Origin: a virus
DNA length: 64,000 bases
Virus record (IMG/VR): IMGVR_UViG_3300031463_000006
Span: 1 to 64,000 of that record
Strand: one strand, 5' to 3'
The notes beneath the pieces are model-generated. The model saw nothing but the letters and a program-made list of their open reading frames with translations, had not been told where the DNA came from and did no database searches. The translations under genes were made by a program, and so were the position numbers. How positions within the stretch are numbered: position 1 is the first letter of the stretch; each line of letters begins with the position of its first letter. Shown piece by piece: positions 17,995-42,904 of the stretch.

Positions 17995-18204
17995 TCACTC
18001 CGCATCGGGGTTGGCTTCTTCCTCGTCAGAGTCGGCAGCTTCTTCGTCGAACTCGTCGTCTTCGTCTTCGCCTTCCTCGTCTTCGTCGCCGGGGCCGTCC
18101 AAGTCCAACGCCTCGTCGTCGTAACCGTAATCAGTATCTTTGCTTCGCTGCGACAACCATTTGGCGTATCGTTCCAAATCGGCTTGCGTCAATTCTTGTT
18201 TCAT
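17995..18204 (-). CDS. Small protein with acidic tail
   Basis: 69 residues from the ATG at 18204, which overlaps the topoisomerase stop as ATGA; the longer frame to 18267 would lie inside that gene. A short N-terminal helix (MKQELTQADLERYAKWLSQ) is followed by a 40-residue tail of almost only Asp and Glu. It may bind basic partners or mimic DNA. No family recognised. Confidence 0.6.
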   Translation of the reverse strand: MKQELTQADLERYAKWLSQRSKDTDYGYDDEALDLDGPGDEDEEGEDEDDEFDEEAADSDEEEANPDAE

Positions 18205-19286
18205 GCGGGCCTCACGCTTTGCATGTAGTTGTCGATGATCGCCGGGTTGATATACTTCTTCCGGCAAACCGCGGGTGTATTGTTAAGCTCTGCCGCAGCG
18301 GCCTTTACTGCGGCATTTACGTTTCGCTTGGCTTCAGCCATTGTGCGCGGCGTACCCATGCGCTCGAGTTCGCGAAGCGCAACCGCACTGCCACGATGTG
18401 TGCGAAAATCCTTTGCTGTAATCTTTACAGGCGAAGATTTTCGCAAGTAATCGTTCACATCTTCCGCCGTCGTATTCAGCAATCGATCGCCAGGTTGTTT
18501 ATTTCGCACGGCTTCTTGCAACGCTTGCACAAGCGCCGGATCGCGTACAGGACGATCCCACATCTTACCGCTCTTGCCCTTGAATTGCAATCGCATCGTG
18601 CCGTCAGGTTGCTGTGTAACGTTCTCGACGCGCAGTGTTGTTGCTCCGCGAGAACCCGTGCGCTTTTCGTGTTCACTTCCGCCAATACGCATTGACGTTT
18701 CGGCGATAAGTGCTACTGCCGTTGCGGCGTTGCGCACGTGAGGATCGCTGCTCTTCAAATCATTGTTTACTTTCGAGAGTAGCTCAGGCATTGCCTTCGC
18801 CATTCTTGCGGTACGCGCAAACTTTCTAGCCGCCGCTTTCTGCTCGTGTTCTTCGGTGTATTTGTATGTCTTTACTTCGCGGCCATTACGATCGATACGA
18901 TGAATTACCGCTTTCAATTCTGTCGAGCCGGGGAATTCATGCACCTTCAAAATCTTGCTAAGCGGATATCCCATATACCGCTGCTCTTTGCCTTCTGGTG
19001 CAGGCGGCAGCTCGGCAGCAAGTTGTTGCGGCGTCTTTACAACGGGCTCGCCGTGTTTCGATGCGGTTGTTGACGATTTCGTACTTGCCTTTGGCTTTTC
19101 TTTTGGTTTTTCTTGTTCCTTATGCTCGGTTGATTCTTTCTGTGCAACCGTATGCTTCGATACGTCGGCCTTTGGATGTTGCCGCAAATACGCTTGTAAT
19201 GCGGCTTCGGTTGGGAACTCTGTACCGCCGCCGCGTATTCCTGCGCCACCAAGAGCGCGAGCCCAAATGAGAAGATTCGGTTTCAT
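18201..19286 (-). CDS. Type IB DNA topoisomerase (poxvirus/bacterial type) with WAR-GG N-terminus
   Basis: 361 residues. The catalytic core (about 110-350) has the expected residues: Arg in ETSMRIGGSEH, Lys in QFKGKSGK, Arg in KDFRTHRGSAVAL, and a Tyr nucleophile in CRKKYINPAI. The position of vaccinia His265 is Asn (LNNTPAVC), which I believe is common in bacterial members. It would relax supercoils through a 3'-phosphotyrosine intermediate. The N-terminus MKPNLLIWARALGGAG plus a 'FPTEAALQAYLRQHPKAD' segment and a Lys-rich linker are extra. It is placed within head-tail genes, suggesting virion packaging and injection, which is inference. Confidence 0.85.
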   Translation of the reverse strand: MKPNLLIWARALGGAGIRGGGTEFPTEAALQAYLRQHPKADVSKHTVAQKESTEHKEQEKPKEKPKASTKSSTTASKHGEPVVKTPQQLAAELPPAPEGKEQRYMGYPLSKILKVHEFPGSTELKAVIHRIDRNGREVKTYKYTEEHEQKAAARKFARTARMAKAMPELLSKVNNDLKSSDPHVRNAATAVALIAETSMRIGGSEHEKRTGSRGATTLRVENVTQQPDGTMRLQFKGKSGKMWDRPVRDPALVQALQEAVRNKQPGDRLLNTTAEDVNDYLRKSSPVKITAKDFRTHRGSAVALRELERMGTPRTMAEAKRNVNAAVKAAAAELNNTPAVCRKKYINPAIIDNYMQSVRPA

Positions 19287-20222: not shown

Positions 20223-21056
20223 TCATAGAAGCGGCGTCACTGCCTCCAAAATCTTTGTGTGATTTGCTGGCCTGTCGCCACGCAGAACAAGCGCCAAACC
20301 ATTCACTTGTTTCATCATGTTGATGCAGTGCCATCGTTCTTCGAATTCGTTTACCGAGATGATCGCACGCGCGTTGTCGACGCTCGGGTCCATACATTCG
20401 ACAACGACAGCGTCGCCCATATCGGTTATCGCACACGGTACAACCCAATGACTGTTATCGTAACTCGATTCGTATGGCGAACCATCCGTTGCATGCATTT
20501 TCTTTGGATCTTTCCATGCCTGAATACATGCAAGCACAACGGCACCTTCCTTTAGCGCGTCAACCACGTCATCAATGCGCATGGCTTCCCGTTTCTCGGG
20601 CTCCACACCGCATTGTTGCGCGGCATAAGCCAACCCTTCGATGCTTGTGCCGCCATCGGCAGTTGTGCCAGCCAAGGCCGCAAGTTCGTCTTCCTCGCGG
20701 CCGATGCCGAATGCCGCAAGTGCGGCACGCAACGCAGCCGGGCCGCACGTGTAGTTCGTCACCTGCCGAACCCGTGGCACTCGCACACCTACGCCGCCTT
20801 TCCCGCCCATAGCGGCCGCCCATCTTGCGAGCGGAATGTCGAACGCGGCCCGTTCTTGTGCACTCGGCATTCCACGTCGCGCGCCTTTGCCCTTGCCGCG
20901 ACGCGCACTACATCGTCCACCTCGCGCACAACCACCCGACTCGCGCGCCTTGCGCAAGGCCGCTGCAACTGCTTGGTCTTGCGGATGGCCAGCTCGCATC
21001 ATTTCGCGGATGTTGCTGCTTATCGTTTCCTTCGACGAACCTTCTTTGAGCGGCAT
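20223..21056 (-). CDS. C39-like papain-fold cysteine peptidase with phage N-terminal module
   Basis: 277 residues. Residues 1-42 ([20 protein letters not shown], then [18 protein letters not shown]) match a short helical module common at the start of phage proteins (DUF6496-like). A Lys/Gly/Arg-rich linker follows, then the WAR-GG-like peptide [15 protein letters not shown] at 76-90. The peptidase part has Cys in [13 protein letters not shown], His in [10 protein letters not shown] and Asp in ECMDPS, the C39/papain triad pattern. It might process a head protein, act on host proteins after injection, or be a bacteriocin-type peptidase relative. It sits beside the capsid genes. Confidence 0.75.
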
Positions 21057-21171: not shown

Positions 21172-21615
21172 TCAGGAGGGGTTACTGACGTCACCACCGG
21201 CAACGAAAGTATATTCGCCCGCCGGCGCCTGCGCAACATCATTCGGCAGGCGCGGCACGATGCAAAGCGAGATCGCTCCGTCGCTTGACCGCGCGTTCAA
21301 ATGCGCAACGGTCGGTGTCTCGACGTAAGCGAGTCGTCCGGCTCGCACAACAATGTCATGCTCGGGTTGCGTGTTGAACCACCGATCACTCAAATCGTCG
21401 TGCACGTAAACCGCAACCGGAATGCATGCGCCCTCCGGTGCATCGAGCCCAATTACAACTCGCTGAACGGGGAAGCCGTTGATGTTGGCCGGCCGCAACT
21501 CCAATAGGTTGTCGCGATCTGCACGCGGCGCATGCGAAGGCGGTTCGTCTGTGCCGAGTGTTCCGCCTTCGCCAACCGTTCGCGTGAACTTGATCTGAAA
21601 GCGCATGACGCCCAT
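21172..21615 (-). CDS. Probable capsid accessory (decoration-like) protein
   Basis: 147 residues, beta-rich (MRFQIKFTRTVGEGGTLG, FPVQRVVIGLDAPEGACIPV). The ATG is coupled to the major capsid stop. A small beta protein immediately after the capsid gene is the usual place for a head-decoration or minor capsid protein. No family recognised. Confidence 0.5.
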   Translation of the reverse strand: MGVMRFQIKFTRTVGEGGTLGTDEPPSHAPRADRDNLLELRPANINGFPVQRVVIGLDAPEGACIPVAVYVHDDLSDRWFNTQPEHDIVVRAGRLAYVETPTVAHLNARSSDGAISLCIVPRLPNDVAQAPAGEYTFVAGGDVSNPS

Positions 21616-23003
21616 CAGCCAAGCGAATGCTCGATGACGACGGCGCGCTTGTATCGCTCTGGTCCCGTTCCGTTCGTCATGTCGCTTGGCACCGGGAAGC
21701 TAGTCGTAATCTGCCACGTTGCAGCAACTGTGTCCTGCAACCGATTCAGCGGTGCACGCAAGATGAGATCGATGCGCTCGGTTTGCACAGACACACCTGC
21801 GTTAATGATCTCGAACTCGCCCATCTTGCCAGTGATACCGGCTTCGCTCACGTACAGATTGCCAGGCAGCCACTTCTCGTAAAGCGCTCCGCGACCCGTA
21901 ATGATGATTCGACCGACACGAATCCCGCCTTCGTTCACTACTTCGCCGCCGATATCCTCACCATACATCGCATTTACACCCGTCGGTGTAAGCGCTCCCA
22001 CGTTCAGGCTATCGGGCGACTCGGTGTTCATGAAGAACATGATGCCGGCAATCGTACCGATGAATCCTTCATGATAGATGTGATAATCCGGCAACGCAGT
22101 GTTGAGCCGCTGGAATGCCGGATCGGTAAACACTTGCGCGTTGCCATCCGGACTGATGTGTGCGTGATAGTAACCATCCTCGTGCGGCGGAACGTTGTTC
22201 CTGCGCAGCTTGTTCACCGCATTGATCGCATCCTGCAACGTGAACACGTCACCTGCGCCAAGTGCATCGACAGAGGTGCCGCCGCCGGATCGAATCACAA
22301 GCGGGGCTGCGCTCGAGATGACCGGGGTTCGTGCGGGAATACCACCCCCACCAATCGCAGCGTCGAGCTGAAGCGTTCCCGGGCCAAACGGATCGTCGGG
22401 GTTGTCGGGCGTGAAGCCAACAACATTTCGCGTACCGATGGTCGCGATGTTGATGGCAAGCGGCGTCGCGGGGCTGACTGGAACGGGCCGCACCGTGGTC
22501 GACGGAATCACGACGTCAGTAAACCCGTTGAGCGCTGCAACGCGAATAAACGTGTCGCCTGCCGCCGCCGCCGCAATGGTAAGCGTCTGGCCCGAAAGAT
22601 ACGCCTTGAACAATTCGTTTCGCGGAATGCGGTTGAGCGACTGCCCGGCCTGCAAGCCGAGCTGATGCACGTTGCGCAGAAACAGATTTGCCGATGCCGT
22701 TGCGGAAGTCGGCATGTGAGTGTCGATCGTTCCGCTATATCGAGCGAGCCGTGCAATCCATTGTTCGAAGTTGATCGACTGCGGAAGCGGATCGTTCCCA
22801 GGTGACAATGGCTTCGTGATTGGAGCCAGCAACCCGGGGCGCGACATGAACAACTCGGTTCCCGTGTTCGCTGGCCATTCTTCGACAAGTGCTTCCTGTC
22901 GATACTGTAGGGCGGGATACAAACCATCGTGGAAAGCACGCTCAAGCAATCCTTGCTGGACGAGCTGTACGACGGCAGGCGGAATTCCTAGAACTAGCGG
23001 CAT
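21615..23003 (-). CDS. Major capsid protein (HK97-fold candidate)
   Basis: 462 residues, preceded by AAGGAGATAACC before the ATG. The N-terminus (MPLVLGIPPAVVQLVQQGLL, ERAFHDGLYPALQYRQEALV) and C-terminal strand region (RIDLILRAPLNRLQDTVA then WQITTSFPVPSD) fit large HK97-fold capsids. The central part has EDGYYHAHISPDGNAQVF and EDIGGEVVNEGGIRVG. It follows the scaffold gene and precedes decoration and neck genes. Identification rests on length, order and overall pattern rather than one decisive motif. Confidence 0.75.
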   Translation of the reverse strand: MPLVLGIPPAVVQLVQQGLLERAFHDGLYPALQYRQEALVEEWPANTGTELFMSRPGLLAPITKPLSPGNDPLPQSINFEQWIARLARYSGTIDTHMPTSATASANLFLRNVHQLGLQAGQSLNRIPRNELFKAYLSGQTLTIAAAAAGDTFIRVAALNGFTDVVIPSTTVRPVPVSPATPLAINIATIGTRNVVGFTPDNPDDPFGPGTLQLDAAIGGGGIPARTPVISSAAPLVIRSGGGTSVDALGAGDVFTLQDAINAVNKLRRNNVPPHEDGYYHAHISPDGNAQVFTDPAFQRLNTALPDYHIYHEGFIGTIAGIMFFMNTESPDSLNVGALTPTGVNAMYGEDIGGEVVNEGGIRVGRIIITGRGALYEKWLPGNLYVSEAGITGKMGEFEIINAGVSVQTERIDLILRAPLNRLQDTVAATWQITTSFPVPSDMTNGTGPERYKRAVVIEHSLG

Positions 23004-25815: not shown

Positions 25816-26544
25816 TCAAGGAACGCCAGGCGGGATGTATAGGCTTTCTTCGTAGGGGTTATCATCGGGGATTCCGCCTTCGAAATCTGGCGGAACAATA
25901 GCACTTTCCTTCAATACAAGCCGTTCCAAATCGATCCATCCGCGAAGTATTCGATCGCCAATCTGTAACATACCATTGCTTGTATGCTGAAACTTTCGGT
26001 CGCGTTGCCTGCCATACGGTTGACCGTAATCGTATGATCGCAACGTTGCGGTCGCAAGTTCAAAGTAAACAAAGATCATGATATGATCGCTATTGGGCGC
26101 GCTTCCGCTAATATGCAGCACGTCACCGGGCTTTGGTAACGCACCTTCTTCGGCGCGAACATATCCAGGCGCATTGACAAGTCTCGATACATTTGCGCCG
26201 ACCTTCCACGGCACAACGCCGCCATCCCAATCGCGATTGATGATGCGCTCGTCGCGTACACCAAGACACATCAAAAGCCAGTTGCCCAAATCGCCGCAAG
26301 ACGAATACGACACCTCGGGTGAACCACACGCGCGCCGACGTTCGTTTTCTTTGCGCCTGTTCTCGGTAACCCAATCATACACGGGGTCGCCTACATCGCG
26401 ACCCTTCTCGCCATTCACGGCGAAACGCCCAAGTGCAACCGCCGCCGCTCGCAAAATGGTTGGATCAACAAGCAATGCGCTTGGCTTGCCTGCAAGAATC
26501 TCCGCAATTGGAGCTCCGGGTCGTTGAAGAAATACTCGTTTCAT
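25816..26544 (-). CDS. NlpC/P60- or CHAP-like amidase/peptidase
   Basis: 242 residues. A Cys in SYSSCGDLGNWLLMCLG at about residue 82 and a His in NSDHIMIFVYFE, preceded by KPGDVLHISG, are the order and spacing of CHAP and NlpC/P60 papain-fold enzymes, which cut peptidoglycan cross-bridges or amides. The acidic C-terminus (GGIPDDNPYEESLYIPPGVP) is probably flexible. Its location among head genes suggests a virion-associated wall hydrolase or a host-directed enzyme, not the endolysin. The third active-site residue is not certain. Confidence 0.6.
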   Translation of the reverse strand: MKRVFLQRPGAPIAEILAGKPSALLVDPTILRAAAVALGRFAVNGEKGRDVGDPVYDWVTENRRKENERRRACGSPEVSYSSCGDLGNWLLMCLGVRDERIINRDWDGGVVPWKVGANVSRLVNAPGYVRAEEGALPKPGDVLHISGSAPNSDHIMIFVYFELATATLRSYDYGQPYGRQRDRKFQHTSNGMLQIGDRILRGWIDLERLVLKESAIVPPDFEGGIPDDNPYEESLYIPPGVP

Positions 26545-26553
26545 AGTTGGCTC

Positions 26554-27771
26554 CTATTGAGCTAATGCTATTGCGTCGGCGGCGCCTTCTCGCGTCAATG
26601 CACCGCCACCTCGTACTTTGCGCAATCGATCTATTGCTTGCTGCATCGTAAGATGTTCTGGACCAAGTCGCATCGCCATCGCAGCAATAATCGCAGAACG
26701 ATTCATACCGCGCAAACACGTTACAAACACGCGCTTCCCAAGTGCTCGTTGTTCGTTTACCCATCGTGCCGCATCGCGTGCGATAAGTGCATCGCGCAAA
26801 CTCACAGGATCGTCGTACATCGGAGCATGATACACTTCGACGCCAGGAAACTTCTCATCTGGCGCTTGATACTCAACTGCCGCAAGCACAATTGCATCAA
26901 AGTAACGACCGATCTCAACGCCCTTTGGCGGCGCAGATCCAACCCACAAGCCTTCGGCCACTTGCGCCGCGTCAAATGGCATCGGATGCGATTCGCGTTC
27001 TCGTTGCGGCAATCGTTGTCGGCGTGCAACACGAATCTGCGCTTGCGTTTCTTCAGGCGTCGGCCATGGCAATCCAACCGCCTGCACAACTTCGGGCGGT
27101 GCAACGGGTCGCGGCGCCGATATCCCGAGATCAAGCGCGTGTAGGTATTCGCTTGCAGCTCGCGCAAACTTCGCAATCGAATCGTAGTTCTCTTCGATTG
27201 CGCGTCGTTGTTCTGGCGACGTCGGCTTGTACACGGCATGCTGCCATTGCGCAAATGCGTCGGCATGCTTGGTTCGTAGCTGCACTTCCTTCGCCAACCC
27301 ATCGTCATCGATCACCGTGACGTGTCGCGCTCGATAACCAATCTCATTTGGCGCGTCGAACATATCGTCATCGTCAACAACGTCGAACTCGTCATGCAGT
27401 ACACGTGCGGCCGCATCCACATCATCGAGCGTATCAACAACAACCGATGCGCCCGTTACATCCTCAAGCTTTTCGGGTTCGTCGTACTTGTCAGCACGAC
27501 GCGGTAACTTCTCGAGCATCGAATGCAACGTCTTGAGTCGCACGCCAACTTTGGCATCAGGAAACAACTCGCGCAGTCGGCGCAGAAATGCCTCGGCCGA
27601 TTTCGCATGCTTGCGCTGCACTCGTTTGGCTTCATTTTCAAGCGTATCCGCATCGCCATCAAGCTCATCATCTTCGATTGCGCTGCGTACCTTGTTACGA
27701 GCAACATCAAGCTCACGGTCGGCAATCTCGTCGGCCAATACACCACGCGCCCAAGTCGTTAGCTTGCTCAT
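26554..27771 (-). CDS. RelA/SpoT-type nucleotidyltransferase fused to dual-specificity phosphatase
   Basis: 405 residues. Residues ~75-185 match a RelA/SpoT synthetase domain: VGVRLKTLHSMLEKL, LEDVTGASVVV, NEIGYRARH and KEVQLRT with a following Trp-Gln-His. Residues ~265-400 form a phosphatase domain with the CX5R loop C352-LRGMN-R358-S and a candidate general acid in MYDDP (about 320). The synthetase transfers pyrophosphate to a nucleotide or tRNA; the phosphatase would remove phosphates, so the two activities may oppose each other. The N-terminus MSKLTTWARGVLADEI resembles the WAR peptide of other proteins. It lies between the CHAP-like gene and MuF, suggesting capsid cargo (inference). Confidence 0.8.
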   Translation of the reverse strand: MSKLTTWARGVLADEIADRELDVARNKVRSAIEDDELDGDADTLENEAKRVQRKHAKSAEAFLRRLRELFPDAKVGVRLKTLHSMLEKLPRRADKYDEPEKLEDVTGASVVVDTLDDVDAAARVLHDEFDVVDDDDMFDAPNEIGYRARHVTVIDDDGLAKEVQLRTKHADAFAQWQHAVYKPTSPEQRRAIEENYDSIAKFARAASEYLHALDLGISAPRPVAPPEVVQAVGLPWPTPEETQAQIRVARRQRLPQRERESHPMPFDAAQVAEGLWVGSAPPKGVEIGRYFDAIVLAAVEYQAPDEKFPGVEVYHAPMYDDPVSLRDALIARDAARWVNEQRALGKRVFVTCLRGMNRSAIIAAMAMRLGPEHLTMQQAIDRLRKVRGGGALTREGAADAIALAQ

Positions 27772-28835
27772 GCGCTTTCCCTACCAAATCGGTTGAGCGG
27801 TACGGTCGTCATGGTCGAAAGGTCGCGCGGCGGAGGTGCGCCACGACGTCTTTCGCGTCGCCAGGCGGCTGCAACCTCGGCGTCGCTACGCCATCGAAGC
27901 TCATCAGGAATGGGCCATGCGATGCGATGCGGCACGACAACTTCGCGGTCATTCGGCCGATTCGGCGGGTGCTGGTAGTATCCGCCGGCCCATTGAAAAG
28001 CCTCGTCTGGACGTCGTATCTGTCCGTGCACCTGATAGCTATCCCAACTGGTTCTATCGTCGAACGTTGCGCTAAGGATCTTTACCACGTCGCCGAGTTC
28101 GTCGTCTGCCGCGCGGATGCTTTCCCATCCGCTTCGATTCAAAGCTCCCATCGTTTCCGTTCGCACGATGCGCTCGGCCCAATAGCGCGGCGCGCCTTGC
28201 AGAAACGGGCTTCGCTCAATCAATTCGGCACGCACGTCACCCCACGGCTTTCCGGTTGCGATGCCAACCTGAAGCACCTTCTCGAACTCGCCGATGGTTG
28301 CCATGCTGTACCTCGAAAGCACACCGCCCTCGCGCATAGGTTGCGGCGGCACGGCCTCGGTAACGTCTTCGTCGGGCGATTCCTGCGCCGCTTCGGCTTC
28401 CTTCTCGCGAGTCGCTAAGCGGCGTAGCACCGACGCTTCCGCACCCGACACCGCACGCGACAACATCGAGGCTTCCCGTAACCCAAGCGGGCGCGCGCGC
28501 GCGCCAAGTTCCTGATTGGCGCTTTGCAAGTAATCGTACATACCAAGCGCGCCAAGCTCGGCCGCTTTGCGTGCAGTCGTTGTTGTTGTGCGCCCAAGTC
28601 GTTGCGCAAGATCTCGCATTACTGCGCGAAGCTGCGTCAACGTAGCTTGCATTTGCGCAACGCTAGTTGGCGTTGCAGCTCCGGCGCGAACCGCAACGTC
28701 GAGCCGGTGCGCAAGATCTTGCGTCGCCCGCTGCAACAAGGCTTCGACTTCCTTGCGCCCAACACGATCTGCCAGCGCAAGCGCTTGTTCGCGATTCAGG
28801 CGAAGCACATCAGCCGCGCGGCCGAGCCGTGGCAT
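27768..28835 (-). CDS. MuF-like minor head protein
   Basis: 355 residues from MPRLGRAADVLRL at 28835 (longer frames to 28910 overlap the portal more). A helical N-terminal half (KEVEALLQRATQDLAHRLDV) is followed by the MuF core: ERIVRTETMGALNRSGWESI and then DDRTSWDSYQVHGQI with HPPNRPNDREVVVPHR, equivalent to the usual 'CxxLHG ... P..P.CRC' block but with the cysteines lost. Minor head proteins of this family bind the portal and enter the capsid. It overlaps the portal gene by 26 bases and the RelA/SpoT gene by 4. Confidence 0.85.
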   Translation of the reverse strand: MPRLGRAADVLRLNREQALALADRVGRKEVEALLQRATQDLAHRLDVAVRAGAATPTSVAQMQATLTQLRAVMRDLAQRLGRTTTTTARKAAELGALGMYDYLQSANQELGARARPLGLREASMLSRAVSGAEASVLRRLATREKEAEAAQESPDEDVTEAVPPQPMREGGVLSRYSMATIGEFEKVLQVGIATGKPWGDVRAELIERSPFLQGAPRYWAERIVRTETMGALNRSGWESIRAADDELGDVVKILSATFDDRTSWDSYQVHGQIRRPDEAFQWAGGYYQHPPNRPNDREVVVPHRIAWPIPDELRWRSDAEVAAAWRRERRRGAPPPRDLSTMTTVPLNRFGRESA

Positions 28836-30819
28836 CGCTCGCCTCCGTCTCGCGTGCTGCATTGCGGCGGCGTTCGTCTTCGATGGCAGCTTTCTCGCGT
28901 TCGACCGCAATGCGCTCGCTTGCCTTTGCCATCGACAAGAACTCGGCCACGGTCATGTCGCCATCGGCGCCCTCCAACGGCGGCAATCCCATTCGTTCGC
29001 GCAGCTCGTTCACGCGCATCATGCCGACTTGCTTGAGGTCTGCTCCGCGATCCAATACGCGGCTCCAGTTGCTGCGCGGCAATGCATCGGGCGGTAGCTC
29101 ATCTTGGCTGCTAACTCGGCCGCCCATGCCGCCCATGCCTTGCCCCGTGTCGCCAAACATTTGCGCTTGTGCGGCTTCCTTTTCCTTCTTCTCGCGTTGA
29201 ATGCGCTCCCAATCCGCCCGAGGATCGATGCGCACAATACGCGCAGCCAAATCGGCTCCGCTTTCCTGCGAAAGCAACGAGCCGCTCACAAGCTGCGTCA
29301 GCGTGGTTGCGGTCTGTTGCTGGTCCTGCGCCGTCGGCGTGAAGTAGTCACCCCAATCGAACACAAGCACATCGCTCTTCCCGGGACGTTGTTCCTCATA
29401 TTCGGTTCGTGTTTCGCCGGTAGGCTCGCCCGTTGTTTCGTCACGCTCTGGTACCTCAACGGCTCGCGGCGGCAAGTCCAGATAGAAGGAGCGCTCAACC
29501 TCGTTGCCTTGTTCGTCTTGCACGACGGTCACAAGCTCGAGCGCGCGCCGTGCGCTACGAATCATCTGTACTAGCAACTCGCGAATTCCACGCTCATATT
29601 GCTCGCGCAAGATGTCTGCTTTACCGAGCATCGGCGCATAGATAACCTTGAGCGCAACGCTGCTTGTTCCCGCGGCTCCGATCTGATTCGGGTCGGGAAC
29701 CACGCATTGTGCTACCTCGAGCGCACTTTCGCGCATCTTCGTGAAAAGCTGCGTGCCGACTTGTACGCTGGTTCCCTGAAGCTCCATGTAGTGAGCATCG
29801 CCTGTTTGCCCAACCAGCAATGCGTTATCCGAACCTTTGCTGACACCGGTACGCGCAACGATATCAGGATCTAGTTTTAGGATAAGCGTAGGATCAAGGT
29901 TCAACGTTGTGCCGCGCACAAGCGTCGAATGCAGAATGTCGAGCGCATCAAATGTCTCGTAAAGCCCTTCGTAATCTGTCGAACCGTCGATTTCTTCACT
30001 GTGTTCGCTTGGCAGATTTTGGATCCAAACAAAGTGTGTGAATCCATCGCCGTGCGAGTAAGTGTTTGCTTCGTCGACAACCCATTGCGGATCTAATGAC
30101 GGTGTGAACAATTGCTCATGGAACGCCACATCGGCAACGGGCGTCCAATCTCGTCTGAACCAGTACCAGTTTCGCACAAAGCGCTTCTTGTTTTCGTCCC
30201 ATTCATCACGCGGGAATTTGTAGATCTCCATGACGTGACGCGGAATCAACCGCTCACGATCTTCCCACTCGTGCACGTACAAGTGTTTCGCGTTGTGCGC
30301 TTGCACTACCGGACGTCCTTTCACGAACCGCCACGACAAGCCGACAGTGCCAACCATGCCACCGATCGTGCGAGCTCGAATCATCAACGTGCGAAGTCCA
30401 GCCGCATCAGCAAGTGCACGCACAAATTCTTCGGTCGTTTGATCTCCAGGGCATCCGATGCTCGGCCATCGCTGGTAACCAAACACAAGATTCGTAAACG
30501 AATCGACGATGACACGAGCGAGTCGGTATGGTGCACTTGGACGTCGCAAGCGTAGCGGCACATACCACGGCGAAGGCTCGCCGCTTAGGTTCGGCTGCCC
30601 GAGTAACGGGTTACCTGCTGGAATTGGACGGCCCTCGAAGTCAAACTGTTTCCAGTCGTGTTGCGTGCACGAGTAGTAACTCTGCTTTCGATCAAGCAGC
30701 TTGTAGCGCTCGGATTCGATGATGCTGCGAGCGCGAAACTGTGGGCCTAGTGTTGTTTGATCAAGGCCGAAGCTGGACGCCACGAACACGTCCTGGCCGA
30801 ATGCATAGGCTTGGCTCAT
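28810..30819 (-). CDS. Portal protein
   Basis: 669 residues. Patterns include SPWYVPLRLRRPSAPYRLAR, RTIGGMVGTVGLSWRFVKGR and KVIYAPMLGKADILREQYER with GIRELLVQMIRSARRALELV, typical of the clip, wing and stem of phage portals. The C-terminal ~100 residues are Glu/Lys/Ala-rich helices. Dodecamers form the DNA channel and bind the terminase during packaging. It is upstream of MuF, as usual. Confidence 0.85.
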   Translation of the reverse strand: MSQAYAFGQDVFVASSFGLDQTTLGPQFRARSIIESERYKLLDRKQSYYSCTQHDWKQFDFEGRPIPAGNPLLGQPNLSGEPSPWYVPLRLRRPSAPYRLARVIVDSFTNLVFGYQRWPSIGCPGDQTTEEFVRALADAAGLRTLMIRARTIGGMVGTVGLSWRFVKGRPVVQAHNAKHLYVHEWEDRERLIPRHVMEIYKFPRDEWDENKKRFVRNWYWFRRDWTPVADVAFHEQLFTPSLDPQWVVDEANTYSHGDGFTHFVWIQNLPSEHSEEIDGSTDYEGLYETFDALDILHSTLVRGTTLNLDPTLILKLDPDIVARTGVSKGSDNALLVGQTGDAHYMELQGTSVQVGTQLFTKMRESALEVAQCVVPDPNQIGAAGTSSVALKVIYAPMLGKADILREQYERGIRELLVQMIRSARRALELVTVVQDEQGNEVERSFYLDLPPRAVEVPERDETTGEPTGETRTEYEEQRPGKSDVLVFDWGDYFTPTAQDQQQTATTLTQLVSGSLLSQESGADLAARIVRIDPRADWERIQREKKEKEAAQAQMFGDTGQGMGGMGGRVSSQDELPPDALPRSNWSRVLDRGADLKQVGMMRVNELRERMGLPPLEGADGDMTVAEFLSMAKASERIAVEREKAAIEDERRRNAARETEASDATARPRG

Positions 30820-33904: not shown

Positions 33905-36676
33905 TTACCGCGCCATGAGCGATGCTGCCAAGCCCGGTCGCAATCCACCCGCACCTGCCGCATGCGATACACCGGCCGTCAGCCCCATGGCTCGTGCTTG
34001 TTCTCTTGCCAACCATGATGCCATCAACACGTCATCAACGTGCGCATCAGGCTGATAATACAAACACGCATCAACCCATCGTTGCACATTTGGATGGCAT
34101 CTTCCTGCGTGATCGCACGGAATAATCCACGCGCCATTCTGAATCTCGACGAACAAACTTTCGACACCATATTCCGGGTGCGCTTTGTTTCTTCCAGTTG
34201 TGTGTGCTTTGATCGGCACACTCGCATTCTGCGCACGCGCAAACTGCAAGATATAATCTTGCGCGTTATGTACGATGTAATCTTCGACAACATACGATTC
34301 GTCTTCTTCAACGATCAAGTTGTACACCGGACCATCATACTTCTCAACCACACCTGGTTCCGGTTGCAATATGCTCGCCCATACACCTTTGTCATCGATC
34401 GCAAACTTCGAGTTCGAAGCGTGTTTGCGAGTTACATACGGCGCCCATTGCACATCTTCGATCTCGCTCGTGAATGTTTCGCACAATCGAAACGCATCAT
34501 CGGCGTACAACGAAAGCGTGTAAATCGAACGATCGACAACGCCAGGCTTGATGTATCGATACGAGCTTTCATTATCCATTGTCAGCATCGCACGGCAACC
34601 AAATTCGAATAGCGTCGTTCGTGCAAACAATATCCAATTGCGCGATATACTGATGCCGGAAATCTCATGCAATAACATATTTGTCGAGCGCATACATCCG
34701 GCTCCCATGAGCCAACCGCGCACCATTGCAAGTCGTTGTGCTAGCGGCCAGCCAAACAATGGGATCGGTGGACACTTTGCATCGCCAACACCGAACGCGC
34801 CAAACATGTCTGCAATTGCCGCACCATCTACGCGGAAGACGAAATCGTCAATTTGTTCGCAGCTAGCGTTGCGAGTTATGTCGTACAACACCGAACGAAC
34901 AAACTCTGCAAGATGCGACTCGTGTCGCCCGAATATAAATCGAACTTGATGATCTACAACTTCCCCTCGCGCCATGAATAGCCCAAGCAATAGCGCTTCG
35001 CGCTCACCAACAGACACGTCAACGCTGCCGACATGCAATACCGGGTCGACCGCTGGCCAACACGGAACCGCAAGCCCTGCATAGGCCGGGCGGTCACGTA
35101 GCCCAAGCGAAATCCATGTCGCCTCGCCAACCAGCCTACGATATTCCAACCCGTCGTGCTCGGCTTCGCGCAACCAGAACCAGTGATTCGGCGTCGTCAC
35201 AACCGGCAAAGAACCATACGCTCGAGCCGTACAAACGGCGTGAGCAACACCGGCGACCCGTTCTAGGACTCGGCGCCAGCGGCCACGATGCGTCCACACC
35301 TCGGTGCCAGGCGTAACCAGTTCGATGGGAACATAGCCGTTCTTCGTCAGCACGCGCGTTCCCGGAACAAAGCACGAATTGTTCTCAACCCGAGCAATCG
35401 ATTTATATCGTTCGCACTTCTCGATGATCTTGCGAACGATTGTAGGTGCATCCCATTGCCCGAACTCGACGTCGAGAATGAGCCGCTTCCCGTCGGGCAA
35501 ACACTCGGCCGTGAACAACGCCGTCAAGTCGTGCTGCGCGCCTTTGCCTACCGCGAGGTCAACCCCGGTCACGGTAACGTTTGAGCCCGTGTACTCGCTA
35601 ACCAGCGTGCGACCCTTGCCTTGCTCTTTACAACGCTCAATCCAATCGATCTTGCAACGAGCCGTTTCGTCGTTACGGCAGACGCACATATAAAGTTGAT
35701 TATATCGATGCGGCAAGTGCTTTGTACGCAATCGTTCAATCTCATCCCAGTCATAGCGTTCTGGCCAAAGCGGCACGTTCTCGGTAATAACTTCGCCGCG
35801 TTCGTTGCGCGCCTCATTGTGCGCCGTCAATCTGTACACTTCGCCAGGGCGTGCACTCGGAACAATATCCGAACTATCCCAATCTGGGCAATTCGATAGC
35901 TTGATGTTGCCCTCAATATCCATGGTCAGTGTCGGCCAACCAGCGGCTTCCAATCGATATGTGATATCGTCGGGCGACCATGGCGTGTTCGTTACGACAA
36001 GTCTTCCTTTATGCGGATCGATACGCGATAGCACCGATGAATCGAACCACTCATGAACCTTGTGCAACCCGGCTGTCGTACTCGTGTTCTCGCGGTCAAG
36101 TATGTCATCCACAACCGCCCATGAAAGACGGGACCCCGCGATTGCACCGTCAATGCCTACTGCCACAAGCGACGGGTCGCGAATTGCCGGAGGTCGATCA
36201 ACCGTGATCTCCGTCTGCGTCCAAGGGTCGGTCTTACGAACCGATTTGCGTAGCCGAGGAAACACAAGCCGCAACTCATGGCTGGCTTCGATCAAGTCGC
36301 GCACCATAGCAAGCGGCTTCATGGCCTGACCTTGCGTCGCGCTAACCAAGGCACCGCGGCTTGCCGGGTCGCGCCCGAGAAAGTGCAACCCAAGTGTCGC
36401 CATGCAGAACGTCTTGCTTGTGCCGACCGGCATGCGCACAACACAGAACCTATGCGCCTCGACGAAATCAAACAACACTCGTTGATGCGGTGCAATTACA
36501 AGTTCCGCGTTTGTATGTTCTTCGCGCATCACGAAGCCAAAGAATTCTTTCACATCGGAACGTGCACGTTCAGCTACCCATTCAAGATGCGCAACAAGTA
36601 GCTCACTTTCTTCGATCGCTTTCGGATCGATGCCGACTCCTGCAACAATTTCTTGGTACCTATCGCCTTGCATCAT
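33905..36676 (-). CDS. terL: Terminase large subunit, interrupted by an intein
   Basis: 923 residues including a 370-residue intein (435-804), leaving about 553 residues, normal for TerL. Walker A-like RMPVGTSKTF (81-90), Walker B LSWAVVDDILD (185-195), and a nuclease part with TVTGVDLAVGKG (D373), LILDVEFG and HVDDVLMASWLAR. It packages DNA into the prohead by ATP hydrolysis and cuts concatemers. The intein interrupts the conserved VENNS/AQDYI loop in the nuclease domain. A second Met at 36673 could be the start. It is divergent from the ParB-methyltransferase gene across only 35 bases. Confidence 0.9.
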   Translation of the reverse strand: MMQGDRYQEIVAGVGIDPKAIEESELLVAHLEWVAERARSDVKEFFGFVMREEHTNAELVIAPHQRVLFDFVEAHRFCVVRMPVGTSKTFCMATLGLHFLGRDPASRGALVSATQGQAMKPLAMVRDLIEASHELRLVFPRLRKSVRKTDPWTQTEITVDRPPAIRDPSLVAVGIDGAIAGSRLSWAVVDDILDRENTSTTAGLHKVHEWFDSSVLSRIDPHKGRLVVTNTPWSPDDITYRLEAAGWPTLTMDIEGNIKLSNCPDWDSSDIVPSARPGEVYRLTAHNEARNERGEVITENVPLWPERYDWDEIERLRTKHLPHRYNQLYMCVCRNDETARCKIDWIERCKEQGKGRTLVSEYTGSNVTVTGVDLAVGKGAQHDLTALFTAECLPDGKRLILDVEFGQWDAPTIVRKIIEKCERYKSIARVENNSCFVPGTRVLTKNGYVPIELVTPGTEVWTHRGRWRRVLERVAGVAHAVCTARAYGSLPVVTTPNHWFWLREAEHDGLEYRRLVGEATWISLGLRDRPAYAGLAVPCWPAVDPVLHVGSVDVSVGEREALLLGLFMARGEVVDHQVRFIFGRHESHLAEFVRSVLYDITRNASCEQIDDFVFRVDGAAIADMFGAFGVGDAKCPPIPLFGWPLAQRLAMVRGWLMGAGCMRSTNMLLHEISGISISRNWILFARTTLFEFGCRAMLTMDNESSYRYIKPGVVDRSIYTLSLYADDAFRLCETFTSEIEDVQWAPYVTRKHASNSKFAIDDKGVWASILQPEPGVVEKYDGPVYNLIVEEDESYVVEDYIVHNAQDYILQFARAQNASVPIKAHTTGRNKAHPEYGVESLFVEIQNGAWIIPCDHAGRCHPNVQRWVDACLYYQPDAHVDDVLMASWLAREQARAMGLTAGVSHAAGAGGLRPGLAASLMAR
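34265..35374 (-). other. Intein in TerL with degenerate homing endonuclease and Ala at +1
   Basis: 370 codons. Block A is CFVPGTRVLT (Cys1), block B VVTTPNHWFW keeps TxxH, and the C-terminal block is SYVVEDYIVHN with the penultimate His and terminal Asn. The first C-extein residue is Ala (AQDYI), not Cys, Ser or Thr. The two LAGLIDADG-type helices read LLGLFMARGEV and VRGWLMGAGCM, with the catalytic acid positions occupied by Arg and Ala. The joined extein ...ENNSAQDYI is a normal terminase sequence, so the boundaries are well supported. Confidence 0.85.
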
Positions 36677-36711: not shown

Positions 36712-38067
36712 ATGCGCCGTCAACTCAAGGTATCTGCCACGTCTCCAGTTGCAACCCCTACAATTGACAACGCCTCCCAAATCGTTCCCATCGACTCAAT
36801 CAAACCATGGGACAAGAACCCGCGCAAGAACGATCAAGCCGTCAACAAGGTCGCCAAGAGCATCAAACAATTTGGCTTCAACGCGCCGATCATTGTGTGC
36901 CGCGCGACAAACGAAATCATTGCCGGCCACACGCGCTACAAGGCGGCACGCAAACTCGGGCTCGCATCGGTACCCGTGCGCTTCATCGATCTGCCACCCG
37001 AGCAAGCACACGCTTACGCCCTGGCCGACAATCGCACCGCCGAAGAAGCCGAGTGGGATACCGAACTTCTTGGTAGTATTCTCGACGAATTACGAAACGA
37101 TGGCGCCGAATACTTCGATGCCATCGGCTTTGACCGAGAAGAACTCATCCGCCTATTAACGCCGCTTCCCGAAGAATCCACACCCGAACCGGCTCCAAAT
37201 CTTGTCGAACGGTATCAAGTAGAACTCGGACAACGATGGGTCATCCATGGCACCGCTGGCGACCATGTTGTCGTGTGCGGCGATAGCACCAATCCGCAAC
37301 ACGTCGCTCAATGCGCAGGTGGCGAGCAATTCGACTTCGTATTCACATCGCCGCCATACAACGTCGGCGTGCGATACGCTTCGCATTCCGATATACACTT
37401 GCCATGGGAACAATACTCGCAGCCATTGCGACATACAATAGAAGCATTCATGCCATATCTCGCGCAGGGCCGCATGGTTGCGTGGAACATCGGCACTGCA
37501 CCAAGAGTGTTTCCTCATCGTCAAGCAGTGCTTCTCGAAGAGTGTGGACTAACATACAATCGGCAGATCGTATGGTCCAAGAACAACGTACCGATGCCGT
37601 TGTGGTATGTAAACAAACGACGAATCGCCGCGCGCTTCTTTACGCCAAACATGAAGCACGAGCTCATCTTGCTGTATTCGAAGGGCAAGGTTGCTTATGG
37701 TGGCAACATCACAATCATCGAAGAATTGCGCGACGATGTTATATCATGCGATGCTAGCAATTCTACCAAAGAACTACCATCGAGCTCGGCACAGAATATT
37801 AGCGGTGCTTCGCATATACGACATCGAGAAGTCACACGCGCGTCGCATCCTGCACCTTTCCCCGTCAAGTTGCCATGGATGTTCGTCAACATGCTTTCCG
37901 ACGTCGGTACCGTTGTTTTCGATCCGTTCGTCGGAAGCGGTTCGACAATACTTGCGTGTGAAAAGGCAAATCGCCGAGGCTACGGCATCGACATCGCGCC
38001 CGAATACGTCGCGCTCACGCTCGAACGTATGGTGCAAAATGGCTGCACCGTTGAGCGTGTAGCTTAA
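36712..38067 (+). CDS. ParB/Srx-like domain fused to DNA (adenine/cytosine-N4) methyltransferase
   Basis: 451 residues; the only convincing plus-strand gene. Residues ~20-115 are a ParB-like N-terminal domain (IVPIDSIKPWDKNPRKND, then IIAGHTRYKAARKLG). Residues ~185-445 are a beta-class amino-methyltransferase: motif IV FTSPPYNVG at about 218 and motif I VVFDPFVGSGSTILAC near 415. Such fusions occur in phages and plasmids and are usually orphan methyltransferases protecting DNA or marking origins. It starts with GGAGG 6 bases from the ATG. Its stop overlaps the convergent recombinase stop (TTAA). Confidence 0.9.
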   Translation: MRRQLKVSATSPVATPTIDNASQIVPIDSIKPWDKNPRKNDQAVNKVAKSIKQFGFNAPIIVCRATNEIIAGHTRYKAARKLGLASVPVRFIDLPPEQAHAYALADNRTAEEAEWDTELLGSILDELRNDGAEYFDAIGFDREELIRLLTPLPEESTPEPAPNLVERYQVELGQRWVIHGTAGDHVVVCGDSTNPQHVAQCAGGEQFDFVFTSPPYNVGVRYASHSDIHLPWEQYSQPLRHTIEAFMPYLAQGRMVAWNIGTAPRVFPHRQAVLLEECGLTYNRQIVWSKNNVPMPLWYVNKRRIAARFFTPNMKHELILLYSKGKVAYGGNITIIEELRDDVISCDASNSTKELPSSSAQNISGASHIRHREVTRASHPAPFPVKLPWMFVNMLSDVGTVVFDPFVGSGSTILACEKANRRGYGIDIAPEYVALTLERMVQNGCTVERVA

Positions 38068-39235: not shown

Positions 39236-39730
39236 CTACTCCTCTCGGACAACCTCGGCCCGCAAACAACGCTCCGCCGCCTCGACGATCGGCTCCCACG
39301 GCAAGCCGTGTTCCGTAGCCCCCGCTACCAGGGCCGCAAGGTATCGGTAGCTAGGTCCGCCGACCTCGGCCCCCGTGTGCACGTACACCCATGCATTCAC
39401 ACGCCGCCCGGCTGGCGACCCGAGCCGCACCAGCAACCACAGCCGACGGTACACGATCGGCGCGCCCTCGTACACGTCGAGCTGCAACAAGTCGTCGCAC
39501 GTGATGCTCGCTATCACGCCGCCAACCATACCGTTGCGCCGCGGCTCGACTGTGGCCACGCTCCCTCCCCAGGCCCCACTATGCCCGACGAACGCCAGCC
39601 GATGCCCTGGCAACCAGGCCGGCGCAAAGTCGGTCGCGCTCGGGCACCGCGCACGCAATTGCTCGGTGCGCATGTTCGACCCGTAGCCGAACACGCGCAC
39701 CATGCCGCCAGCATGCTTGCTTACGCGCAT
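39236..39730 (-). CDS. Gamma-glutamylcyclotransferase-like protein (AIG2/GGCT fold), second copy
   Basis: 164 residues. The YGSN loop appears in MVRVFGYGSNMRTEQLRARC and a catalytic acid in LLQLDVYEGAPIVYRR, with the family's Gly-rich region. The copy differs strongly from its neighbour (YGTLLRG versus YGSNMRT), so these are diverged paralogues, perhaps for different gamma-glutamyl substrates. It overlaps the amidoligase stop by 10 bases. A start at 39703 is also possible. Confidence 0.8.
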   Translation of the reverse strand: MRVSKHAGGMVRVFGYGSNMRTEQLRARCPSATDFAPAWLPGHRLAFVGHSGAWGGSVATVEPRRNGMVGGVIASITCDDLLQLDVYEGAPIVYRRLWLLVRLGSPAGRRVNAWVYVHTGAEVGGPSYRYLAALVAGATEHGLPWEPIVEAAERCLRAEVVREE

Positions 39731-40635
39731 GCGACCTCCACGGCGGCTTGCTCGGCCACGGCCCGACGTGCAGGCGCACGCTTCGGCAGCCGACTCATGA
39801 GATGCTCGAGCACCGTCTGGTCGTCGATGCCGAGCGTCAGCTTTACTAGCCGACGCATCAGCTCGCGATCGCTGGCATCAGCATCGACCGGGCGGCCGCT
39901 GACGTGTCTCGCCGTCACCGCATGCGCTACCAGGGCCAGACACAAGGTAATCATGGCCCGAACCTTACCCGCATGCAGCGTCGACGCGAAATATCTGAAT
40001 TCGACGGTCCCCCGGTAGAACCACGAGTTCAGATTTAGCCCGTGGTAGCGGCTCGCGTCGTAGCGCGTCGGCGAGCCAAGGTATCGCCCGTACCATGCTC
40101 CCTCGAGCGAATACCGGGTGACGCGACTGCCGTGCCGCCACACATAGTCGGCGAATTCCGGGTCCATGCGCTTGCAGTACCGATTGCCCGGCCGGCCAAC
40201 CGCCTTCTCAATTACCGGCTCATACCGGCAGATGGCCGCCGCCAACCGCGCGATCATCTTCGCCCCCCGATCATCGCGCTCGATCCCCCCCACGTGCACG
40301 TGCAGCCCGCATCTATCACTAACCTGTGCGCCCGCACGTCTAAGCGCGCGCACAACCTCCTGCACGCGCGGAATGTCGACCGTCGTGCAGATCGGCGACA
40401 CGACCTCGCAGCCGCAAACAAGCGAACCGTCGTTCACAACGGTCCACTCGCGACGATCGGACGTGCGTACCCCGTACGCGACGCCCATCGCGTACAGGTA
40501 CTCGCCGCCTAGCGCGGCGCGTATCGCCGCGACCGCGCTAGACTTATTGACGCCCTCCACCTCAATCTCAACCCCGAACGTGAGGCGGTCCATCATCCAA
40601 CGGACCGCCTCGTGTTTCTTGTCGCGGGTGGCCAT
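39721..40635 (-). CDS. Amidoligase (COOH-NH2 ligase, glutamine-synthetase-like fold)
   Basis: 304 residues. Key motifs in order: TFGVEIEVEGVNKSS (about 20-33), NDGSLVCGCEVVSP (67-80), DRCGLHVHVGG (107-117) and YHGLNLNSWFYRGTVEFRYF (196-215), the glutamate/His/Arg set of the amidoligase family. These enzymes use ATP to form amide or isopeptide bonds. In published comparative genomics (Iyer and colleagues, 2009) phage amidoligases are neighbours of GGCT-like enzymes, as here. The substrate is unknown; modification of DNA, protein tails or small metabolites is possible. Confidence 0.85.
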   Translation of the reverse strand: MATRDKKHEAVRWMMDRLTFGVEIEVEGVNKSSAVAAIRAALGGEYLYAMGVAYGVRTSDRREWTVVNDGSLVCGCEVVSPICTTVDIPRVQEVVRALRRAGAQVSDRCGLHVHVGGIERDDRGAKMIARLAAAICRYEPVIEKAVGRPGNRYCKRMDPEFADYVWRHGSRVTRYSLEGAWYGRYLGSPTRYDASRYHGLNLNSWFYRGTVEFRYFASTLHAGKVRAMITLCLALVAHAVTARHVSGRPVDADASDRELMRRLVKLTLGIDDQTVLEHLMSRLPKRAPARRAVAEQAAVEVACA

Positions 40636-41570: not shown

Positions 41571-42152
41571 GATGTTTCGTGCACGAAATATTAGGATAGG
41601 AACGGAAGCAGGTAAGGGGAAGGCGATGCTGAGCGTTCTGAATATTCAGAATGGAAGGGATGCAGGTAAGGGGAAGCAGGTAAGGGGAAGGCGATGCTGA
41701 GCGTTCTGAATATTCAGAATGGAAGGGATGCAGGTAAGGGGAAGCAGGTAAGGTGGGCGCGTGTGTTGGGGCGCGTGTGTTGGGGATGTAGGTATGGGGG
41801 AAGACGATATTTCGTGTACGAAACATTAGGATAGGAACGAATGCAGGTAAGTGGGAGCAGGTAAGTGGGAGCAGGTATGCTTGGGGCGCGTGTGTTGGGG
41901 AGCGTATGCTTGGGGCGCGTGTGTTGGGGATGTAGGTATAGGGGGAAGGTAGAGGGGGATGTTTCGTGTACGAAACATTAGGATAGGAACGAATGCAGGT
42001 ATGGTGTGGAGGCTGGAATGGTGTGGGAGCTGGGATGGGGGAACTTGTAACCGGGGCTGATATGTTGGGGCGGGTATGGGTGGAGCAAGTGATATGGGGT
42101 ATGGGTATTCGAGCGCGACGCGGATAGATGTTTCGTGTGCGAAGGATTAGGT
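41571..42152. repeat. Four spaced copies of a palindromic unit (iteron-like)
   Basis: Copies begin at 41571, 41806, 41958 and 42127 (the last degenerate). The core is TTTCGTGTACGAAA followed by CATTAGGATAGGAACG, with a TTTCG-N4-CGAAA dyad. Units are 150-235 bases apart and separated by G/T-rich sequence. Confidence 0.75.
41605..41753. repeat. 68-bp tandem repeat with perfect 16-bp palindrome
   Basis: Two full 68-bp units (41605-41672, 41673-41740) plus 13 bases of a third. Each holds the perfect palindrome TTCTGAATATTCAGAA (41636-41651, 41704-41719) and runs of GCAGGTAAGGGGAA. Confidence 0.85.
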
Positions 42153-42202
42153 GGGGTAGGGGAACGTGTTTGTGGTTGGCGAGGGATAGGTGTGGGGCTA
42201 GG

Positions 42203-42751
42203 TTAGCGGGGAGGGAGGTTACGGAGTGGGGCAGAGATATAGGAGCGAGGGAAGTTAGGAGGGAGCGGGGAGCCGAGGGAGGCGGCATTGAGGGCGTCAT
42301 GGATATCGGCGGAGATGAGGTCGAGGTGAAGTTTGAGGGCATGGTAGTCGGCGAGGAGTAGTTGATATGCGGAAAGGGCTTCTTGTAGCCGGGAGGGTAG
42401 TTGATTTGGGTGAGGTGGGATGGGGTTAGGTGATGGTGGGATAGTTTGTGTGTTAGGTTGGAGGTGGAAGCTATTGGCTGCGAGAAGGATGATAAGGTAG
42501 CCGGCGAGGTCGCGCAGGGAGTCTTCGTTGTCTTGTGTGGGGAGGGTATGTTTGATGCGGGCGAGTTTGTCGTCGATGCGGACGAGGATTTGTTCTAGCT
42601 GTGGGGCTTGCGAGAAGATTCGAATTGGCTCGAACACACTGTTACCATAGCGATTGTTCTTGTCGATGAGCATTTGCTTCAGGTTGTCGCAAACCGCGGC
42701 GATGGCTTGCTGCGCTTCGAGTTGATGGGACGGGCTTGTAGCGTCGCGCAT
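42203..42751 (-). CDS. Nmad1/DUF1599-like protein (nucleotide-modification associated)
   Basis: 182 residues from the ATG at 42751 with AAGGAG upstream. LIDKNNRYGNSVFEPIRIFS and QILVRIDDKLARIKH with SLRDLAGYLIILLAA match the 'KN..YG..vf.p...fs ... RiDDKl.Ri ... DL.GYl' pattern of this MazG-like family, which comparative genomics links to phage DNA modification and nucleotide metabolism. The C-terminal half is Pro-rich then helical and is extra. A 34-bp palindrome lies in its leader. Confidence 0.7.
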   Translation of the reverse strand: MRDATSPSHQLEAQQAIAAVCDNLKQMLIDKNNRYGNSVFEPIRIFSQAPQLEQILVRIDDKLARIKHTLPTQDNEDSLRDLAGYLIILLAANSFHLQPNTQTIPPSPNPIPPHPNQLPSRLQEALSAYQLLLADYHALKLHLDLISADIHDALNAASLGSPLPPNFPRSYISAPLRNLPPR

Positions 42752-42802
42752 AAGGTAACTCCTTGTCGTAACTCGTTGAACGGCAACTATCACAACACAT
42801 CG

Positions 42803-42836
42803 GTGCACAGTTGAAACTCGAGTTTCAACTGTGCAC
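42803..42836. promoter_or_regulatory. Perfect 34-bp palindrome in the leader of the Nmad1-like gene
   Basis: GTGCACAGTTGAAACTC followed directly by its reverse complement, with no loop. It lies 52 bases upstream of the ATG and downstream of the promoter at 42905-42932, so it could be a protein-binding dyad or an attenuating hairpin. Confidence 0.8.
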
Positions 42837-42904
42837 GAAAGTTCGGTGTTCCATAACGATTGCCAGGGGTTGCATGGTGTTCGTCGAGTACGGCACCCGC
42901 GTCG

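What the first reader, a model, noticed from the sequence alone, without database searches (positions are those of the whole stretch)
26554..27771. RelA/SpoT synthetase-like domain fused to a dual-specificity phosphatase
One 405-residue protein has RelA/SpoT signature segments (RLKTLHS, GYR..H, EVQLRT) followed by a CX5R phosphatase (CLRGMNRS). Small alarmone synthetases and ToxSAS toxins modify nucleotides or tRNA; pairing with a phosphatase in the same chain could make a toxin with built-in reversal or a two-step nucleotide modifier. Its place between a CHAP-like gene and MuF suggests it rides in the capsid, as do MuF-linked effectors.
Basis: partly seen in the sequence, partly recalled or inferred. 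Interest (0 to 1): 0.85.

Follow-up and report, generated by a model that had tools for sequence, protein, structure and literature searches.

The report
Phage head-linked alarmone-synthetase–phosphatase fusion
An uncultured tailed phage encodes, beside its DNA-portal genes, one protein that joins an alarmone-synthetase-like enzyme (the kind that makes bacterial stress nucleotides) to a tyrosine-phosphatase-like enzyme; the first half belongs to a known class of head-associated phage effectors, but I found no earlier report of this pairing.

Summary
In detail: a 405-aa ORF on the MINUS strand, 26554-27771, carries a RelA/SpoT synthetase domain (Pfam 54.4 bits against a cut-off of 27; model Z 17 to B. 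subtilis SAS1) and a C-terminal Cx5R phosphatase (CLRGMNRS; PDB sequence hits about 1e-10 to Tk-PTP/ShufPTP). It overlaps a MuF-like gene by 4 nt (ATGA), one gene after the portal. Related RelA/SpoT domains found by sequence alone are head-linked in 5 of about 6 virus lineages: fused to a portal-like protein, beside the portal in the thaumarchaeal provirus Pro-Nvie1, or inside MuF polyproteins. One such polyprotein has a HAD-phosphatase-like domain just before the RelA/SpoT domain. Head-linked RelA/SpoT effectors (MuF toxins, Apk2, polyvalent proteins) are published; the phosphatase fusion was not found in the surveys or collections I could search. Most likely it is a virion-associated, injected two-domain effector: a pyrophosphokinase plus a separate phosphatase activity. 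Cautions: an Arg present in all 18 compared sequences is Ser here (S109), the phosphatase lacks the usual His before Cys, packaging is inferred, and no activity is shown. 'Built-in reversal' is untested. New variant of a known kind.

The parts
26554..27771 (-). 405-aa protein: RelA/SpoT-like synthetase domain + PTP/DSP-like phosphatase
   Evidence: ORF; Pfam/PHROG/PDB matches; residues
27106..27642 (-). RelA/SpoT-like domain (residues 44-222); Pfam core is residues 78-182
   Evidence: PF04607 E 1.8e-14; AlphaFold2 pLDDT mostly 79-98 over residues 21-230; Z 17.0 to 5ded
26557..26991 (-). PTP/DSP-like phosphatase domain (about residues 261-405); P-loop C352LRGMNR358 at 26698-26718; candidate general acid D320
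   Evidence: phmmer to Tk-PTP/ShufPTP about 1e-9 to 1e-10 with alignment; PHROG 10650; model of domain alone Z 9.8 to SDP-1, low pLDDT 57.5
27768..28910 (-). MuF-like head morphogenesis gene directly upstream; its TGA overlaps the ATG of the fusion gene (ATGA)
   Evidence: PF04233 E 2.1e-6 just below cut-off, PHROG 3517 E 7.5e-8; overlap
28810..30819 (-). portal protein
   Evidence: PHROG 64 E 1.6e-6; tblastn to Komagataeibacter phage portals 3e-24
25816..26544 (-). next gene downstream (242 aa, 9-nt gap); 'CHAP-like' label not confirmed
   Evidence: no family hit; gap
21615..23003 (-). major capsid protein, marks the far end of the head block
   Evidence: PHROG 1357 E 2.3e-17, N4-gp56-like

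Best explanation
This is a late, head-block effector gene of a contractile-tailed phage. The protein is probably translated coupled to MuF, is probably carried in or on the head near the portal, and is delivered with the DNA. Its N-terminal domain is a small-alarmone-synthetase-type pyrophosphokinase (ATP donor; acceptor most likely a purine nucleotide, with a site resembling RelQ/SAS1 more than Apk2). Its C-terminal domain is a Cx5R phosphatase that acts as a second, largely independent effector activity, most likely on phosphoproteins of the host. Together they would reprogramme or shut down host metabolism early in infection. Shown: the two domains, their conserved catalytic residues, the gene order, and the recurrent head linkage of related domains. 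Inferred: packaging, injection, enzymatic activity, substrates, toxicity.
For: RelA/SpoT domain over the curated cut-off; fold match Z 17.0, 163 residues, 2.2 A to SAS1 with pppGpp. R78, K80, S84, K88, R91, D104, Y146, H150, E162, Q164, R166 are invariant across the eight aligned locus sequences; all but R91 are also kept, apart from a Ser/Thr swap at 84, in the ten other sequences. Head linkage found from sequence-only searches: RelA/SpoT adjacent to the portal in Pro-Nvie1; at the C-terminus of a 1399-aa protein whose N-terminus resembles that portal (E 4e-6, 22% identity); in MuF polyproteins L029/L030 downstream of the portal; 2-4 genes from the portal in L023 and L017. ATGA overlap with MuF. 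Published MuF-RelA/SpoT toxins with demonstrated (p)ppApp synthesis (PMC12226406). The phosphatase keeps C352, R358, S359 and a candidate D320; a HAD-phosphatase-like domain precedes RelA/SpoT in L029 (PHROG 1238 E 1.1e-23), so a second enzyme next to this domain has a precedent.
Against: S109 replaces an Arg present in all 18 other compared sequences; in FaRel2 the apparently equivalent R95 contacts the acceptor adenine (PMC11782079), so acceptor binding or activity may be altered or lost. The phosphatase has Thr instead of His before the catalytic Cys, scores below the DSPc cut-off, and its model is weak. The MuF domain is in a separate gene, so there is no covalent tether to the head. No virion proteomics. 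Head linkage is not seen in one lineage (L016, 186-kb record, no portal hit by PF04860).
Confidence: 0.55

Rival explanations
1. Toxin with built-in off-switch or two-step modifier: the phosphatase removes phosphates from the nucleotide or RNA product (or substrate) of the RelA/SpoT domain in the same chain, limiting or finishing the modification.
For: Fusion in one chain. In L029 a HAD-phosphatase-like domain also sits directly before RelA/SpoT. No HD_4 alarmone hydrolase was found in the window's record, whereas the pneumococcal phage MuF toxin gene is followed by a metal-dependent phosphohydrolase. Some Cx5R enzymes act on RNA 5' phosphates; baculovirus RNA 5'-phosphatase 1yn9 is among the weaker fold matches.
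Against: The closest solved relatives are protein-type PTPs (Tk-PTP, ShufPTP). L029 strings RelA/SpoT with several other unrelated domains, which fits independent modules. Separate DSP genes in G001/G006 and G004 lie far from the RelA/SpoT gene.
Confidence: 0.15
2. Structural or regulatory leftover: the RelA/SpoT domain is catalytically impaired (S109) and serves as a nucleotide- or protein-binding piece of the head, with the phosphatase the only active part.
For: Loss of the otherwise invariant Syn2 Arg; 1.14 changes/site terminal branch, the longest of the head-linked rows.
Against: All ATP-donor and metal residues are kept, which is unlikely under loss of catalysis.
Confidence: 0.17
3. Not virion-associated: a host-takeover enzyme or superinfection-exclusion factor made late in infection and merely encoded among head genes.
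For: Separate gene from MuF; no packaging signal recognised in the sequence.
Against: Repeated fusion of related domains to MuF or portal-like proteins and the ATGA overlap with MuF.
Confidence: 0.13

Closest known systems
MuF polymorphic toxins with RelA-like domains, incl. Apk2 (PMC5576092, PMC12226406)
   Same: Head-gene location beside the portal, RelA/SpoT-type domain linked to MuF, proposed delivery with phage DNA
   Different: Here MuF is a separate, overlapping gene; Syn3/Syn4 residues are RSH-like (xxH, LR) not Apk2-like (GxN, YH); no HD_4 hydrolase in the record; a phosphatase is fused at the C-terminus
Phage polyvalent proteins (PMC5512222)
   Same: Several enzymatic domains in one chain, RelA/SpoT among them, head/packaging gene context
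   Different: Only two domains; the paper's main text has no occurrence of 'phosphatase'
Small alarmone synthetases RelQ/SAS1 and RelP/SAS2
   Same: Best fold and sequence matches; same donor and metal residues
   Different: Stand-alone bacterial enzymes; keep the Syn2 Arg that is Ser109 here
Pro-Nvie1 gene 6 (Nitrososphaera provirus)
   Same: 33-34% identical RelA/SpoT domain overlapping the portal gene
   Different: 210 aa, no phosphatase domain, keeps the Arg
Archaeal Tk-PTP / ShufPTP and Bongovirus dual-specificity phosphatases
   Same: Cx5R P-loop; candidate general-acid Asp aligned with Tk-PTP/ShufPTP
   Different: Stand-alone proteins with His before Cys in the aligned examples (Thr here)

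Membership tests
RelA/SpoT (RSH/SAS) synthetase domain | Match to PF04607 above curated cut-off | tested here: met
   54.4 vs 27 bits
RelA/SpoT (RSH/SAS) synthetase domain | SYNTH fold | tested here: met
   Confident model; Z 17.0, 2.2 A over 163 residues to 5ded
RelA/SpoT (RSH/SAS) synthetase domain | ATP-donor, metal and G-loop residues (R,K,S,K,R; D; Y; E,Q,R) | tested here: met
RelA/SpoT (RSH/SAS) synthetase domain | Syn2 Arg (acceptor side) | tested here: not met
   S109 vs R in 18 of 18 others; so only family and fold are claimed, synthetase activity is not assumed
RelA/SpoT (RSH/SAS) synthetase domain | Pyrophosphate transfer to a 3' OH | not testable with these tools
   needs enzyme assay
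Cx5R (PTP/DSP) phosphatase | C-x5-R-[ST] P-loop | tested here: met
   C352LRGMNR358S359
Cx5R (PTP/DSP) phosphatase | Pfam DSPc above curated cut-off | tested here: not met
   21.7 vs 33.5 bits; related to the superfamily by sequence to PDB PTPs but not filed as a DSPc member
Cx5R (PTP/DSP) phosphatase | PTP fold | tested here: inconclusive
   model pLDDT 57.5; best Z 9.8, Foldseek best E 1.9e-3, top hits PTP/DSP
Cx5R (PTP/DSP) phosphatase | His before catalytic Cys | tested here: not met
   Thr351 in VTCLRGMNRS; a phage DSP in G004 also has VTC
MuF polymorphic toxin | MuF domain N-terminal in the same chain | tested here: not met
   MuF-like domain is in the upstream gene, overlapping by 4 nt
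Apk2 (MuF adenosine 3'-pyrophosphokinase) | Syn3 GxN and Syn4 YH signatures | tested here: not met
   ARH and LR here
Apk2 (MuF adenosine 3'-pyrophosphokinase) | Linked HD-type hydrolase immunity gene | tested here: not met
   no PF13328 match in the record, which may be incomplete; IapK-type immunity was not tested
toxSAS tRNA pyrophosphokinase (FaRel2/CapRel) | tRNA CCA pyrophosphorylation / tRNA-binding basic N-terminus | tested here: inconclusive
   domain is acidic overall (net -9); CapRel Z 14.7, FaRel2 Z 8.5
Phage polyvalent protein | Packaged and injected multi-domain effector | not testable with these tools
   two enzymatic domains and head context shown; packaging needs virion proteomics

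The most novel reading that the evidence does not exclude
Head-delivered RelA/SpoT enzymes of viruses have repeatedly recruited a partner phosphatase (PTP here, a HAD domain in L029, separate DSP genes in other lineages), and the two act in sequence on the same nucleotide or RNA pathway, giving a self-limited or chemically new modification; the family spans viruses of bacteria and of ammonia-oxidising archaea.
Probability: 0.12. Interest if true: 0.78.

Novelty: new variant of a known kind. Interest (0 to 1): 0.52.

Why it matters
MuF-linked RelA/SpoT toxins were described mainly from prophages of a few cultured bacteria. The loci found here extend head-linked RelA/SpoT domains to portal-like fusions, to an archaeal provirus and to large polyproteins, and add a two-enzyme chain with a phosphatase. 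That makes testable whether phages inject alarmone-type enzymes at the start of infection, and whether a paired phosphatase acts on the host's proteins or on the enzyme's own product.

Tried and rejected
Protein-only scan of IMG/VR found no close relative of the fusion, and a two-sequence alignment found none; a later pattern scan found only known loci plus chance matches. Both genome-contig scans found no relative; the tool's short patterns may have missed them. Plasmids: no match. A PTP scan of IMG/VR returned only five loci of 78-82 kb records, matching the mycobacteriophage (Bongovirus) DSP type. A fixed-gap motif scan with one more codon gave nothing. Kin by taxonomy is not available for virus records. 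I considered that RelA/SpoT viruses carry DSP genes more often than others: 4 of 8 records (3 of about 6 lineages) vs 0 of 15 control records; but total lengths are similar (about 560 vs 490 kb), the window was chosen for having both, and the controls are not matched, so I do not claim enrichment. Clade support for the head-linked group is modest (61/73) and the group was collected by similarity, so its clustering is partly by construction. A mixed alignment of both domains misaligned the PTP rows and was replaced by two separate ones. The C-terminal part of the full-length model (from about residue 248) is low confidence because no homologues covered it.

Full report
What is there. The ORF at 26554-27771 is on the minus strand, starts with ATG and encodes 405 aa. 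Residues 78-182 match Pfam RelA_SpoT at 54.4 bits (cut-off 27, E 1.8e-14). Residues 286-395 match solved protein tyrosine phosphatases (ShufPTP 2.5e-10, Tk-PTP about 1e-9) and the C-terminal part matches PHROG 'dual specificity phosphatase' (1.6e-6); the Pfam DSPc score is below its own cut-off. The window is part of a 67,924-base IMG/VR virus record with sheath, baseplate and head genes.

Structure and active sites. AlphaFold2 gives the RelA/SpoT half with pLDDT mostly 79-98 over residues 21-230; the best structural matches are small alarmone synthetases (5ded_E Z 17.0, 2.2 A over 163 residues; RelP about 16; CapRel 14.7; Tas1 12.6; FaRel2 8.5). The donor residues mapped in FaRel2 (R64, K66, S70, K74, R77; PMC11782079) correspond by motif spacing to R78, K80, S84, K88, R91; D104 and E162 fit the metal/catalytic acids and Y146 the G-loop Tyr. 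All are kept. One feature departs: S109 stands where all 18 other compared sequences have Arg. The Syn3/Syn4 residues (A-R-H; L-R) resemble guanosine-type enzymes rather than Apk2 (GxN; YH), but published swaps of these motifs did not change specificity, so the acceptor cannot be read from sequence. The phosphatase half keeps C352, R358, S359 and D320 (aligned with an Asp of Tk-PTP/ShufPTP) but has Thr before the Cys. Its separate model is weak (pLDDT 57.5), yet the top fold matches are PTP/DSP (Z up to 9.8).

Neighbourhood. Order on the minus strand: terminase with a Hint-like insert, six small genes, portal, MuF-like, fusion gene, 242-aa gene, small genes, scaffold-like (my label, no family hit), major capsid protein. 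The MuF stop and the fusion start share ATGA, and portal and MuF ORFs overlap. No HD_4 hydrolase was found in the record. The neighbour called CHAP-like had no family hit.

Relatives. Against 50,697 phage records the only match to the RelA/SpoT half at E 0.01 or better is gene 6 of Nitrososphaera provirus Pro-Nvie1, which overlaps its portal gene. IMG/VR scans, which use sequence only and not gene position, gave: G001/L010 and L013-L015, where the domain ends a roughly 1400-aa protein whose N-terminus resembles the Pro-Nvie1 portal (E 4e-6, 22% identity, a weak link); L017 and L023, 2-4 genes before a Pfam-confirmed portal; L029 and L030, inside 1478- and 1259-aa polyproteins after the portal, with a weak MuF C-terminus (E about 0.005; gene order agrees); and L016 in a 186-kb record with no portal match. 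Counting close copies once, five of about six lineages are head-linked. L029 also has a HAD-phosphatase-like domain before RelA/SpoT and a second domain after it that matches the C-terminus of pneumococcal phage minor head proteins, which have the MuF-toxin layout published as Apk2 (PMC12226406). Separate DSP genes occur in G001, G006 and G004, and G004 also has an HD_4 hydrolase; an unmatched control found no DSP in 15 records, which I treat as suggestive only.

Tree. In a 19-row tree the head-linked rows form one side of a branch with modest support (61/73); the window row has the longest terminal branch among them (1.14) and no strongly supported sister.

Literature. RelA/SpoT domains fused to MuF and predicted to travel in phage heads were described in 2012 (PMC3482391) and 2017 (PMC5576092; PMC5512222). 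Apk2 domains make (p)ppApp and are followed by IapK and the hydrolase Aph1 (PMC12226406). The main texts of the two 2017 surveys do not contain 'phosphatase', and text searches for the pairing found nothing relevant. The library is open-access only.

Mechanism. I commit to an injected two-domain effector with independent activities (0.55). Steps shown: domains, residues, location, recurrent linkage. Steps inferred: packaging, injection, activity, substrate, effect on the host. The self-reversal or two-step idea (0.15) is attractive because of the L029 HAD domain but has no direct evidence. An impaired RelA/SpoT half (0.17) is taken seriously because of S109.

Limits. The record is uncultured and possibly incomplete; the host is unknown. 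The scans use short patterns and can miss relatives; A0A6J5S4E3 (432 aa) is similar in length and may share the architecture, which I could not check.

Noticed in passing
window 33905-36676 (-): Large terminase of 923 aa carries a Hint/intein-like insert (Hint_2, 30.6 bits over cut-off 28.4, residues 435-492).
   Followed up: partly
window 20223-21056 (-): C39-type peptidase with an N-terminal 40-aa stretch matching PHROG 2423, beside the capsid genes; possibly another head-linked enzyme.
   Followed up: no
window 18201-19286 (-): Type IB (eukaryote-like) topoisomerase in a phage (PF01028 E 9.4e-37).
   Followed up: no
window 39721-40635 (-): Amidoligase_2 gene (E 7e-45) of unknown role in the phage.
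   Followed up: no
window 36712-38067 (+): ParB-N domain fused to an N6/N4 DNA methylase, on the strand opposite to the head genes.
   Followed up: no
window 42001-44000: GC skew is +0.195 in this block while nearly all of the window is negative.
   Followed up: no
L029 5049-9485: 1478-aa MuF polyprotein with HAD-like, RelA/SpoT and Apk2-like domains in one chain: apparently two different RelA/SpoT-type enzymes together.
   Followed up: partly
L010 4105-8304; L013 6389-10576: About 1400-aa protein with a portal-like N-terminus, a long low-complexity-looking middle and a C-terminal RelA/SpoT domain.
   Followed up: partly
L062 2992-3531 (G004:C1, about 35 kb): 186-kb phage record encodes an HD_4 (SpoT/MESH1-type) hydrolase (E 8e-20) besides its RelA/SpoT gene and a DSP gene.
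   Followed up: partly
L017 8624-10795: Portal protein interrupted by an intein-like segment.
   Followed up: no
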